A stretch of DNA of 42,363 bases from an uncultured Opitutia bacterium (lineage in GTDB: Bacteria > Verrucomicrobiota > Verrucomicrobiia > Opitutales > CAJWYM01). The position numbers and the translations under genes are program-made. The stretch spans positions 1-42,363 of the forward strand of contig CAJWYM010000025.1 of assembly GCA_913049555.1 (NCBI GenBank), written 5' to 3'. Below the pieces are notes generated by a model. The model saw only the letters and a list, made by a program, of their open reading frames with translations, made no database searches and had not been told where the DNA came from. Positions 4,443 to 8,227 of the stretch are shown piece by piece (the stretch's first letter is position 1; each line of letters begins with the position of its first letter).

Positions 4443-4904
4443 CTATTTGTACTGAGCAAATTCAATGATCACCCCATCTGGATCCGTGAAGTAGCACAAG
4501 CTTTTTTCGCCATCATCGTGTTGAACCACACCCATAGGAACGGTTACGGGATGAGAAAAAGTTTGGATTCCATTGGCTTTCAAACGGTCTACCATTTCAT
4601 CCATATTATCGATTTGAATTGCAAAATGTCGAAGCCCTTGAGTATTGGCCTGGGAGTTCTCTTGAACTTTGCGACCTAAAGGTTCTATGTATTGAAGAAG
4701 TTCGATGCGAGGTTCCCCTCCCTGAGCTCGTACGTAGGCAACTTTTGCCTTTACTCCCTTGAGACCTACAATCCTATCAATCCACTCTCCTTCGAGGGTA
4801 GCTCGTTTGATTTCAGAAAAATTCAATACTTTTGTGTAAAAGTCTACCGACCTGTCTAGATTGGAAACAACGATGTTGAAATGGTCAATTTTCGAAAGGC
4901 TCAT
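4443..4904 (-). CDS. VOC-superfamily (glyoxalase/dioxygenase-fold) protein
   Basis: A 153-residue single-domain vicinal oxygen chelate protein. The opening KIDHFNIVVSNLDRSVDFYTKVL is the beta-alpha-beta start with a metal-ligand histidine (H8). A second half with LRHFAIQIDNMDEMVDRL and the end CYFTDPDGVIIEFAQ give another histidine and the terminal glutamate typical of metal sites. The family includes methylmalonyl-CoA epimerase, glyoxalase I, extradiol dioxygenases and lyases. The sequence does not settle which, although the layout resembles the lactoylglutathione-lyase-like proteins. Its ATG overlaps the stop of the coiled-coil protein by four bases and its stop abuts aguB. Confidence 0.88.
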   Translation of the reverse strand: MSLSKIDHFNIVVSNLDRSVDFYTKVLNFSEIKRATLEGEWIDRIVGLKGVKAKVAYVRAQGGEPRIELLQYIEPLGRKVQENSQANTQGLRHFAIQIDNMDEMVDRLKANGIQTFSHPVTVPMGVVQHDDGEKSLCYFTDPDGVIIEFAQYK

Positions 4905-6595
4905 TTGAATTTAAACTCTAAATTGTTCGTTCTTTTCATTCTGCTTTTATGAATTTCTAAAAATTGACTTACATTGAAGGAAGGGTAAATAGACATGGAT
5001 TCTTGAATCTCGATCTCAGTGGATTTTAAGGCGAATTTATTATTTCCCATGATGCCTAAGAATTCTCCTTTCAGGGTAAAGACCAAGTCGTTCACAGAGG
5101 GTGAAAAATCACCAAAGAGTTTACTTAAAATGCGACTGTCCATTTTTAAAAATTGGGGGTTTTCCGGCTCGATCTGAAAGGTCGTTTCCCCAAATTTTTT
5201 CTTTTCACTGTTAACAATCGCAACGGTAGAATGACTAAAGGGGTTTTGACTGATCGGGTAAATTGCGAGTTGGCTTGCTTCAGTAAGGCGTTCACTGATA
5301 GGAATGACCGCAATTCTTGGATCTGCTTTTAAAAAGCCAATCTTAGTGATTGGACTGGTTGCATTGCCTGCAATTAAAGTACCTTCTATGGAAAGAACAC
5401 TGTTGTTATAATTATTGGGTTCCAAGGGGGTTTGGACCGTATTAAAAAGCAGGTATTCTGAGTTCCCTTGCTTCAAAAGAATCGTGTCCATTTTAAAGTT
5501 TTTGGACCGTTCTCCGAATAAGGAATCGAGCTCAAATTTAAGCTGAACCTTCACTTTGTTTTGCGAAAAGGTTTGATAAATTTCGTTGCAAGTAAGCGCT
5601 TGTAGGTCCTCCACCTCTTTTTTGATGTCCCCAGTATTCAGAACAAGTTCAGAAACATTTTCAGAAAGTCTTTCCGTTTGTTTGTGCAGAATCTGTCTCT
5701 CTTGTCTCTCCAAAGAGACTTGTTCTTGAGTTTGAGCCAAGGATTGTCGCAACTGATCTTTTTCTTTATCCGCAGCCTCTAATTGAAATTGTAGGACGAG
5801 CGCTTGTTTTCTTTGGTTTTGAAGTTCTTGTTGGAGCAATGAAGTGATTTTTATTTGTTCCAAAATCTCTTCTTGACTGCTTTGTTCAACATCGGTTTTT
5901 TGTTTTTCGACATTGGAAAGTCTTGATTGTAGCTGAAGCGTTTCTATTTCAGTAATATTCAATTTTTCTAAAAGCTCCAATTTCTTTTGTTCTTCTTTCA
6001 TTTTTGCTGATTGTAACTCCACTAAAGAATCTTCAATTCTAGCTTTTTCTGTGATGGTGTTGTTGAGTTGGAGCACGACTTTGTCCGTATTCCTTTCTAA
6101 TTCAGCACTCTTTAGATTGACCTCATTCATTTCAGATTGAAGGGTCTGGTTGGTTTGAAGCAATTCATCGGCAGTTTTAACTGCGATTTCGAGGCTTTTT
6201 TCCGCTTTTTTAAGGGAAACTTCTTGATCTTCTTGGGACTGTCTCGCATTAGCAAGGTCCTTACTGAGTTTTTGTTTTTCCTCAATCACTTCCTTTTGTT
6301 CGAGTGCTAGCAGTCGTAATTCCTCCTCTGTCTTTTTTAAATCTGCAGCTTGCTTTGCAATTTCTTGTTCTGTACTACTTAAATCAGAGACTAAACTTGT
6401 CTGCGCTTGTTTTTGTTGTTCAAGGGAGATTTCCAAAGCCTCAATGAGGTCTTGACTGGCATCCGTCTTTTGGTTCTCTGCCATGGATTCGAGACCTTCA
6501 TTCAATGGATCCTCATTAGGCAAGTCAAAATTAACAAAACCTAAGAGGCTTAGTAAAAGGAAGTCACAAATGATAAGCAATAAGCTCTTATTCAT
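4901..6595 (-). CDS. Membrane-anchored coiled-coil protein with degenerate trypsin-like C-terminal domain; possible MotB/ExbD-like subunit
   Basis: A 564-residue protein not assignable to a named family by eye. It starts with one hydrophobic helix (residues 4-22) that contains an aspartate, ICDFLLLSLLGFV. This is the layout of the single TM segment of MotB/ExbD/TolR, where the Asp binds the driving ion. Residues about 33-330 form a long coiled coil rich in Gln, Glu, Lys and Leu. From about residue 345 there is a compact beta-rich domain ending in GDFSPSVNDLVF...GEFLGIM (near 493). This resembles the GDSGGP...G.VVGI end of trypsin-like folds but lacks the catalytic serine context, so it is probably inactive. 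It begins directly after the stop of the multi-TM gene. That it is a protein gene is secure; the MotB-like role is inference. Confidence 0.85.
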   Translation of the reverse strand: MNKSLLLIICDFLLLSLLGFVNFDLPNEDPLNEGLESMAENQKTDASQDLIEALEISLEQQKQAQTSLVSDLSSTEQEIAKQAADLKKTEEELRLLALEQKEVIEEKQKLSKDLANARQSQEDQEVSLKKAEKSLEIAVKTADELLQTNQTLQSEMNEVNLKSAELERNTDKVVLQLNNTITEKARIEDSLVELQSAKMKEEQKKLELLEKLNITEIETLQLQSRLSNVEKQKTDVEQSSQEEILEQIKITSLLQQELQNQRKQALVLQFQLEAADKEKDQLRQSLAQTQEQVSLERQERQILHKQTERLSENVSELVLNTGDIKKEVEDLQALTCNEIYQTFSQNKVKVQLKFELDSLFGERSKNFKMDTILLKQGNSEYLLFNTVQTPLEPNNYNNSVLSIEGTLIAGNATSPITKIGFLKADPRIAVIPISERLTEASQLAIYPISQNPFSHSTVAIVNSEKKKFGETTFQIEPENPQFLKMDSRILSKLFGDFSPSVNDLVFTLKGEFLGIMGNNKFALKSTEIEIQESMSIYPSFNVSQFLEIHKSRMKRTNNLEFKFK

Positions 6596-8227
6596 TTATT
6601 TGTTGTGTTGCTCCATAATTAGAGAGTTGCGAAGGGGGCGAACATTGAAAATTTTGAGGATTGCGACAAATATAATCCCAAATAGGGTGGATGCATATGC
6701 AGTAATTAAACTAGCATTTAAAACGCCAAACGCTAAAAGAATCAAAGAACAAACAGTTCCACCTAGACCAACATAAAGGCCTGCATCGAATAAGTTGTCT
6801 TCATTGTCCAGTAGTTTGAGTTTTAGGATTGGATCCTTCGTTTGTTTTTTAATATCGGCAATGCGAAGAAGACCATAATAGTAAATGGCGATTTGAGCTA
6901 AAAAGAAGAGGATTAAAATGATAATACTCACTTTATCTAATGGGTCGGCAGCGGATTTAAGCATGGTGTTTTCTGAATTTGCGGAGAGGTTAATTAAATC
7001 TAAAGTTGCAATGTCTGGTGGTCGCTTTGATTCGCCTTGCAAAATAGAGGGTTCTAAGGTCAAAACAACGAGGCTAGCAAAAAAAGTTGCAAAAGCCAGA
7101 TCGGCTGAGATTGCAAGACTGAATGAGTGGGCGCTGATTCTTCGCTCCCTAAACTGTAGGAGTAAAAAGTGTGAGACCGCTAATCCTGAAATCAACAGCA
7201 GGAAAAGTTTGAGTAAAATTCCGAGAGTTTTTGAGTCAAAGGTAGCTTTTCGCATTCCCTCTAAAATTAAATCAGGGATTAGAAACTGGATGGAACGCAT
7301 CGCTTTGTTCTCACGGTAGATCGGTTTTTCTGTATTTATCAACTCATTGAGAGAGGCAGTTCCTAGTGAAAGAGCAAATTCAATATCTGCCATTCCTGTT
7401 TTTGGGTGGAGTTGGTAATAGAAGTTGAGTTTCTGGACAGAATCACTCAGTAATGAAGCAGCAAGGATTGTATTAGAATCTTTGGGCGAATCGAGAGCCA
7501 TGCGAACTAAATCTTGAATTTCTTGGAGACTTTCACAATTGCTAATAATCGCTTTACAGATTCCCCAATTGTATCGGTTGAGCAGACTTAGAATCGATTT
7601 GTAAGTATTTTCAACTTGATTGAAAGAAGTGTCTACGGATTGAAGGCTTTGACTTCGGTGAAATTTAAAATCAATCAGCAACTCATCAAGAATAGAATTC
7701 TCCTCCATCATGAGTGCAAATGAATTGATGACGGCATCCAAAGGGGCTCCAGAAGAGGAGTCTACAGGTTTAAAAAAGCGCCAACCCATTAAATTTTTTG
7801 TGTCCAAGATCCATTGAATGTTTTGATTCACTGAATATTTGAAGTGGTATTTTAATTGATTTCTTACTTCTGGTTGCAATAAAAAAGGAAGAATGTTCGG
7901 CTCTTTGTATCTATAATTCAGTTCCGTCTGTATTTTAACTAACAATTGACTGCTGGATCCGATTGCATCCAAATTAGGCGAGGATTCTAAAAGGGTTCTA
8001 TCTTCGAACTCCTCGCCCTTTGCCAATCGTTGGTTCACATTTAATAAGAAGGCTGCGATTTCTTCTTTACCTGCCATCAATGCTTCTTCGGCATGAGCCT
8101 CTAAGGAATGGTTCTCATTTTTGAAACCTTGTAAAAATGTTTGAGAAGTGGCACTGAAATAAACAGGCATCCCAACTCCCAGAACGAGAGTAATGAGTGC
8201 TATGATAAATATGATACCACTTTTCAC
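6596..8227 (-). CDS. Multi-TM membrane protein with large extracytoplasmic domain; possible MotA/ExbB-like channel subunit
   Basis: A 543-residue protein starting at a GTG codon, 12 bp after gcvP. It has an N-terminal membrane segment (residues 4-24) and a mainly helical soluble region to about 330, probably extracytoplasmic. Four to five further membrane segments follow (about 333-357, 372-395, 428-450 and 485-530). The last pair reads GLGGTVCSLILLAFGVL then AYASTLFGIIFVAILKIFN followed by VRPL. This recalls TM3-TM4 of MotA/ExbB/TolQ proteins, with a GTV motif, a small-residue T-L-x-G-I segment and a basic exit. I do not recognise a named family. The next gene starts at the base after its stop, so the two proteins are very likely made together. 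The channel role is inference. Confidence 0.83.
   Translation of the reverse strand: MKSGIIFIIALITLVLGVGMPVYFSATSQTFLQGFKNENHSLEAHAEEALMAGKEEIAAFLLNVNQRLAKGEEFEDRTLLESSPNLDAIGSSSQLLVKIQTELNYRYKEPNILPFLLQPEVRNQLKYHFKYSVNQNIQWILDTKNLMGWRFFKPVDSSSGAPLDAVINSFALMMEENSILDELLIDFKFHRSQSLQSVDTSFNQVENTYKSILSLLNRYNWGICKAIISNCESLQEIQDLVRMALDSPKDSNTILAASLLSDSVQKLNFYYQLHPKTGMADIEFALSLGTASLNELINTEKPIYRENKAMRSIQFLIPDLILEGMRKATFDSKTLGILLKLFLLLISGLAVSHFLLLQFRERRISAHSFSLAISADLAFATFFASLVVLTLEPSILQGESKRPPDIATLDLINLSANSENTMLKSAADPLDKVSIIILILFFLAQIAIYYYGLLRIADIKKQTKDPILKLKLLDNEDNLFDAGLYVGLGGTVCSLILLAFGVLNASLITAYASTLFGIIFVAILKIFNVRPLRNSLIMEQHNK

What the first reader, a model, noticed from the sequence alone, without database searches (positions are those of the whole stretch)
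4901..8227. Candidate MotA/MotB- or ExbB/ExbD-like pair with a giant coiled coil and dead trypsin-like domain
Two adjacent genes with no gap encode complementary membrane proteins of unrecognised family. The first ends in a TM pair reading GLGGTV...AYASTLFGIIFVAIL then VRPL, close to the TM3/TM4 pattern of MotA/ExbB channels. The second starts with a single TM helix with an embedded Asp (ICDFLLLSLL), as in MotB/ExbD, followed by about 300 residues of coiled coil and a trypsin-like fold lacking the catalytic serine. Together they look like an ion-driven machine with a new sensor/effector end. The multi-TM protein also carries an unusually large extracytoplasmic domain. The TM and coiled-coil features are seen directly; the family link is my inference.
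Basis: partly seen in the sequence, partly recalled or inferred. Interest (0 to 1): 0.65.

Follow-up and report, generated by a model that had tools for sequence, protein, structure and literature searches.

The report
Divergent MotAB/ExbBD-like membrane motor pair
Two neighbouring bacterial genes encode a membrane channel-like protein and a partner with a charged membrane helix, a long rod and an inactive protease-like head; they are inherited together across a bacterial phylum and look like a new, very divergent branch of the ion-driven motors that power flagella and nutrient import, though motor activity is untested.

Summary
Window 6596-8227(-) (A, 543 aa) and 4901-6595(-) (B, 564 aa) abut with no gap. 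Neither has a Pfam or NCBIfam match. B is one membrane helix with an Asp (D11), a 262-residue heptad coiled coil, and a trypsin/HtrA fold without catalytic residues. A and B are present or absent together in the order (36 of 36 against 0 of 14), usually as neighbours. Other classes of the phylum carry a 180-aa form of A (only the membrane core) with B directly downstream. Conservation sits in the membrane parts: B residues 1-24 share 70% identity and A TM5-6 68%, against 26-31% in most other parts. D11 is present in 135 of 135 B proteins, and A TM4-6 hold no charged residue in 153 proteins. The link to MotA_ExbB is below HMMER detection, but profile-profile comparison finds it: probability 77%, P 2e-5, both signature motifs in register (ExbB Thr148 and Thr181), against at most 11% in controls. 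Best reading: a divergent, probably 5:2, ion-driven A/B complex driving a periplasmic rod with a pseudoprotease head. Stoichiometry, ion flow and biological role are not shown. A cleaved signal peptide is unlikely.

The parts
6596..8227 (-). Gene A: 543-aa polytopic inner-membrane protein, six predicted TM helices, N-in/C-in
   Evidence: ORF; orthologues in 29 of 52 order genomes; AlphaFold2 mean pLDDT 88.6, pTM 0.84; TM and charge profile
7238..8152 (-). A residues 26-330: all-helical extracytoplasmic domain, found in the Opitutales form only; absent from the ~180-aa form of other classes
   Evidence: 31% mean pairwise identity
7040..7231 (-). A residues 333-396: TM2 and TM3
6635..6934 (-). 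A residues 432-531: conserved membrane core TM4-TM6, the only part shared with the short form
   Evidence: 58.6% identity, TM5-6 67.9%; no charged or His residue in the central columns of 153 sequences; short forms
6752..6769 (-). A residues 487-492 GLGGTV: motif 1, T491 aligned with ExbB Thr148
   Evidence: G487 and G490 153/153, T491 149/153; hhalign register; ExbB numbering
6674..6700 (-). A residues 510-518 AYASTLFGI: motif 2, T514 aligned with ExbB Thr181
   Evidence: S513 150/153, T514 131/153 (the rest Asn), G517 153/153; hhalign register
4901..6595 (-). Gene B: 564-aa single-pass membrane protein
   Evidence: ORF; orthologues in 30 of 52 order genomes
6527..6583 (-). B residues 5-23: N-in TM helix with the invariant D11
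   Evidence: D11 in 135 of 135; 70.4% identity over residues 1-24
6563..6565 (-). Codon of B D11, the candidate ion-binding residue
5666..6451 (-). B residues 49-310: coiled coil
   Evidence: 3.50 periodicity, 0 of 500 shuffles; helices 49-194 and 212-310
4922..5602 (-). B residues 332-558: trypsin/HtrA-fold domain without catalytic residues (pseudoprotease head)
   Evidence: pLDDT about 95; Foldseek E 5e-6; VIA Z about 11-12; no conserved Ser or His

Best explanation
A and B form an inner-membrane complex that works like MotAB, ExbBD or TolQR. Several A subunits, most likely five, form a ring whose TM5 and TM6 line a pore. The N-terminal helices of a B dimer sit in that pore. Ions, probably protons, pass by way of B Asp11, assisted by the hydroxyls of A T491 and S513/T514, and turn or shift B relative to A. 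The motion is carried by the B coiled coil to a catalytically dead trypsin-fold head, which binds a periplasmic or outer-membrane partner. The large helical periplasmic domain of the Opitutales A is a lineage-specific addition that could anchor or gate the ring. Shown here: the two proteins, their topology by prediction, the invariant Asp, co-inheritance, the concentration of conservation in the membrane core, the pseudoprotease fold, and a weak but controlled profile link to MotA_ExbB. Inferred: assembly, stoichiometry, ion flow, force and the target.
For: Linkage: A and B are both present in 36 and both absent in 14 order genomes, one of which keeps only a broken A and no B (Fisher 1e-12). 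They are neighbours in the order A then B in 25 of 28 order loci; in three genomes they have been separated and both kept. In other classes a minimal 180-aa A precedes B, usually with a 4-base overlap. Conservation is focused on the membrane: B 1-24 70.4% and A TM5-6 67.9%, against 26-31% for most of the rest. D11 135 of 135; an acid in the middle of an N-terminal hydrophobic segment occurs in 19 of 319 background proteins. No basic residue in A TM4-6 could pair with D11. Motif pair G[LIMVF].GT[VILAM].[SGAT]...[ST]..G[LIMV]: 101 of 125 A, 31 of 34 MotA_ExbB, 0 of 1302 other proteins. hhalign against MotA_ExbB: Prob 76.6, P 2.1e-5; reversed controls 0.2-0.4; best block shuffle 11; the value rose as both profiles grew. 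HMM rank test AUC 0.91 against 0.57-0.75 for shuffled profiles. The aligned Thr residues are ExbB Thr148 and Thr181, which with ExbD Asp25 are described as essential (PMC12905483; numbering read).
Against: No significant HMMER match of A to any family or solved motor; the A profile run over nine genomes did not recover their ordinary MotA_ExbB genes; Foldseek and VIA on the A model gave no motor. The helix of B shows no sequence link to ExbD or MotB beyond the Asp (rank AUC 0.51). The large cytoplasmic domain usual in MotA and ExbB is missing, and the loop between the two pore helices is about ten residues shorter than in ExbB. No plug or peptidoglycan-binding domain was found. T514 is Asn in 22 of 153. 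The same genomes already hold ordinary MotA_ExbB systems (12 matches in this one).
Confidence: 0.62

Rival explanations
1. A passive envelope sensor. B is a membrane-anchored pseudo-DegS that senses a periplasmic ligand with its head; A is a scaffold that passes the signal through the membrane, to a Ser/Thr kinase in some lineages. No ion flow takes place.
For: HtrA/DegS fold; in nine of the short-A loci a membrane Ser/Thr kinase with an FGE-sulfatase domain follows A-B; a dead protease domain suits ligand binding.
Against: Does not explain an invariant Asp in a membrane helix facing a partner without any basic residue, nor the MotA_ExbB motifs and profile match. The kinase was not seen among the neighbours in the Opitutales loci.
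Confidence: 0.22
2. A membrane complex of another kind (assembly factor, secretion or lipid-handling scaffold), in which D11 only helps packing or insertion and the GxGT and T..G motifs are convergent helix-packing motifs.
For: Small-residue motifs are common in tightly packed helices; no significant HMMER or fold match to motors.
Against: The motif pair is in 0 of 1302 background proteins; the profile alignment is in register over two helices and far above block-shuffled controls that keep local composition.
Confidence: 0.12
3. The N-terminus of B is a cleaved signal peptide, so B is a soluble periplasmic protein and the Asp is incidental.
For: Short basic n-region, hydrophobic stretch and an ALA-like c-region in many Opitutales copies.
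Against: D11 in 135 of 135; residues 1-24 are 70% identical while the rest of B is 17-28%, the reverse of what a signal peptide normally shows; the ALA motif is absent from the window copy (GFVNFD) and from most short-A partners.
Confidence: 0.04

Closest known systems
ExbB/ExbD and TolQ/TolR (PF01618 with ExbD)
   Same: Gene order; last three TM helices out-in, in-out, out-in with C-in; GLxGTV and T..G[LI] motifs in register (Thr148 and Thr181 of ExbB); single-pass partner with a conserved Asp in its TM helix
   Different: No HMMER match; tiny cytoplasmic loop; shorter pore hairpin; partner has a 262-residue coiled coil and trypsin-fold head, not the ExbD/TolR periplasmic domain; large helical periplasmic domain on the ring protein in Opitutales
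MotA/MotB flagellar stator
   Same: The short form of A has four TM helices as MotA has; A STLFGI resembles GTFLGI of MotA, and B CDFL resembles ADFx of MotB, in genomes of the same order
   Different: No torque-generating cytoplasmic domain; no OmpA-like peptidoglycan-binding domain; no flagellar genes among the neighbours seen
GldL/GldM of the type IX secretion system
   Same: Precedent for a 5:2 motor whose inner subunit spans the periplasm (PMC9389320); that GldL lies outside PF01618 is general knowledge, not tested
Zorya ZorA/ZorB
   Same: 5:2 membrane motor (PMC11890865) with a long coiled extension (general knowledge)
   Different: In Zorya the long tail is on the A subunit and cytoplasmic (general knowledge); PADLOC models give no match to A or B
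DegS/HtrA proteases
   Same: Membrane-anchored trypsin-fold domain in the periplasm
   Different: No catalytic Ser/His, no PDZ domain, long coiled coil between anchor and domain

Membership tests
MotA_ExbB (PF01618) | HMM match above Pfam cut-off | tested here: not met
   No match for A or any of 21 core sequences; the 12 matches of this genome lie on other contigs
MotA_ExbB (PF01618) | GLxGTV and T..G[LI] motifs in the two pore helices | tested here: met
   101 of 125 A proteins, 0 of 1302 background; conservation
MotA_ExbB (PF01618) | Homology by profile-profile comparison | tested here: inconclusive
   hhalign Prob 76.6, P 2.1e-5, controls at most 11; good but below usual certainty
MotA_ExbB (PF01618) | Last three TM helices out-in, in-out, out-in with C-terminus inside | tested here: met
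   Hydropathy and charge profile, helices in the model; prediction only
MotA_ExbB (PF01618) | Fold of solved motors | tested here: inconclusive
MotA_ExbB (PF01618) | Large cytoplasmic domain before the pore helices (MotA, ExbB) | tested here: not met
   About 28 residues between TM4 and TM5
5:2 rotary motor | Pentamer of A around a dimer of B | not testable with these tools
   No multimer prediction available
5:2 rotary motor | Ion flow coupled to movement through a membrane Asp | not testable with these tools
   Needs experiment; the Asp itself is invariant
ExbD/MotB partner | Single N-in TM helix with a conserved Asp | tested here: met
   135 of 135 B proteins
ExbD/MotB partner | Sequence relationship of the TM helix | tested here: inconclusive
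   24-residue profile ranks ExbD/MotB no higher than other N-terminal helices, AUC 0.51; too short to decide
ExbD/MotB partner | ExbD periplasmic fold or OmpA-like peptidoglycan-binding domain | tested here: not met
   No Pfam match; the C-terminal domain has a trypsin/HtrA fold instead
HtrA/DegS protease | Trypsin-like fold | tested here: met
HtrA/DegS protease | Catalytic His-Asp-Ser triad | tested here: not met
   No conserved Ser or His in the domain; only D425 and D503 are nearly invariant

The most novel reading that the evidence does not exclude
A previously undescribed family of ion-driven transenvelope motors, widespread in Verrucomicrobiota, with a minimal ring subunit lacking the cytoplasmic domain and with a periplasm-spanning coiled-coil axle that ends in a pseudoprotease; in some lineages it is paired with a Ser/Thr kinase, so that force or ion-motive force may be read out as phosphorylation.
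Probability: 0.4. Interest if true: 0.8.

Novelty: new variant of a known kind. Interest (0 to 1): 0.62.

Why it matters
Only a handful of 5:2 motor systems are known (Mot/Pom, Exb, Tol, Agl, Gld, Zor). A further one with a minimal ring and a new output module would show how little of the A subunit the motor needs, would widen the known uses of ion-motive force at the cell envelope, and would give a function to a conserved, unnamed gene pair of the Verrucomicrobiota. The invariant Asp makes the idea directly testable.

Tried and rejected
Pfam, NCBIfam and PADLOC scans of A and B: nothing credible. HMMER profile of the A core against the PDB: only weak rows such as designed helical bundles and tail-anchor receptors. 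Foldseek and VIA on the A model: best rows are unrelated helical membrane proteins at Z under the level the tool calls meaningful for helical bundles; neither for nor against. A core profile over nine genomes: only A itself, and one trivial match in the window genome. B N-terminal profile against ExbD/MotB: no signal. PDB profile search with B: matches only other coiled coils. Plasmid and phage tblastn with A: none, so mobile-element origin was dropped. Neighbours as a clue to function: in Opitutales the neighbours are housekeeping genes that differ between families (peptide deformylase and Fur, methionine synthase, GcvP here), so they say little. 19 of 73 named loci seemed to lack B; the ORF caller drops genes overlapped by longer antisense ORFs, and these were not followed singly. 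Paper searches found no description of the pair; the library holds open-licence papers only.
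Full report
What is there. The window comes from a 3.1-Mb genome; its closest named relatives are almost all Opitutales and Puniceicoccaceae, phylum Verrucomicrobiota. On the minus strand, A (6596-8227) and B (4901-6595) abut without a gap, 12 bases after gcvP and followed by a 4-base overlap with a glyoxalase gene, then a carbon-nitrogen hydrolase, an ExoD and an rlmN-like gene (the last by eye). 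Pfam and NCBIfam give nothing credible for either protein.

Spread and linkage. A was found in 29 and B in 30 of 52 genomes of the order. In an even draw over the phylum the same 36 order genomes have both and 14 have neither; one of the 14 keeps only a stop-ridden remnant of A (Fisher 1e-12). A and B are neighbours, A first, in 25 of 28 loci; in the other three they lie far apart but both are kept. No plasmid or phage match was found.

A minimal form. The A profile also found, in other classes of the phylum, proteins of about 180-200 aa matching only the last 115 positions. They have four TM helices and B directly downstream, mostly with a 4-base overlap. Of 35 such loci examined in the second batch, a downstream gene was called in 28, and every one begins MN or MR with D at position 11. 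In nine loci a membrane Ser/Thr kinase with an FGE-sulfatase domain follows. So the shared unit is a small membrane protein plus B; the roughly 300-residue helical periplasmic domain of the window A is most simply read as an addition.

Where conservation lies. Mean pairwise identity is 70.4% over B 1-24 but 26.0% in the coiled coil and 27.7% in the head; in A it is 67.9% over TM5-6 and 31% in the periplasmic domain. D11 is present in 135 of 135 B proteins (72 different 24-mers). In 153 A cores, no charged or His residue occurs in the central columns of TM4, TM5 or TM6, so D11 has no basic partner there. Q445, D481, G487, G490 and G517 are invariant, T491 is 97%, S513 98% and T514 86% with Asn otherwise. 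This is what a membrane-embedded A:B core with a functional buried acid would show, and it argues against a cleaved signal peptide.

Relation to MotA_ExbB. HMMER does not see it. Profile-profile comparison does, weakly at first and better as the two profiles grew: Prob 20 (ExbB-type only), 55-63 (with a divergent MotA_ExbB group of the same order), 76.6 with P 2.1e-5. Reversed profiles give 0.2-0.4 and the best of about 40 block-shuffled profiles 11 (at least one shuffle run failed with a format error). The alignment puts GLGGTV on GLLGTV and AYASTLFGI on the ALxTTxxGL segment, so T491 and T514 fall on ExbB Thr148 and Thr181 (numbering read), which together with ExbD Asp25 are called essential in a 2026 review (PMC12905483). 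Used as an HMM, the A core ranks 34 MotA_ExbB proteins above 155 other membrane proteins with AUC 0.91; shuffled versions reach 0.57-0.75. The motif pair is in 101 of 125 A, 31 of 34 MotA_ExbB and 0 of 1302 other proteins. The motif was written with both families in view, so the zero in the background is the informative number. The background is limited to proteins from the fetched loci.

B beyond the membrane. Residues 49-310 have a 3.50 heptad period, no Pro or Gly, and 41% E+K+Q. Residues 332-558 are modelled at pLDDT about 95 and match HtrA/DegS. No catalytic Ser or His is conserved. A head of this kind most plausibly binds a peptide or protein partner; which one is unknown.

Conclusion. 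The best reading is a divergent 5:2-type, ion-driven complex with a new periplasmic output module. It works like an ExbBD or MotAB; it is not filed as a member of PF01618, since the HMM criterion was tested and not met, and a family of its own is the honest label. Steps that are inferred: ring and dimer, ion flow, force, gating by the helical domain, and target binding.

Noticed in passing
L191-L198, L208 (short-A loci): A-B is followed by a membrane Ser/Thr kinase with a C-terminal FGE-sulfatase (SUMF1-like) domain in nine loci of one phylum-level group.
   Followed up: partly
L099 8218-9036 (+): A genome without A carries a 272-aa protein with a signal-like N-terminus and only the head domain of B, also without a recognisable catalytic triad.
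   Followed up: partly
L210 (G347 C12): Stop-ridden remnant of A with no B in the genome: the pair seems to be lost together.
   Followed up: partly
L091-L093: One family has A proteins of 760-808 aa with an insert in the periplasmic domain, and B is followed by an STT3/PglB-type oligosaccharyltransferase gene.
   Followed up: no
L124 (PBCW01000002.1): A contig labelled Rhodospirillaceae bacterium SP3966 carries an Opitutales-type A and B pair; the record is probably mislabelled or mixed.
   Followed up: no
L084/L085, L094/L095, L096/L097: In one family A sits before lpxA-like and pdxA genes and B elsewhere in the genome, yet both are kept.
   Followed up: partly
L237, L242, L244, L249: A divergent MotA_ExbB group (AIPSxGFxGTVRGI ... 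AFNSTL) in genomes of the same order; in L237 a downstream gene starts with NLSFMDCICCGFGAIILLF and carries a VWA-like region (by eye), apparently another uncharacterised motor-like system.
   Followed up: no
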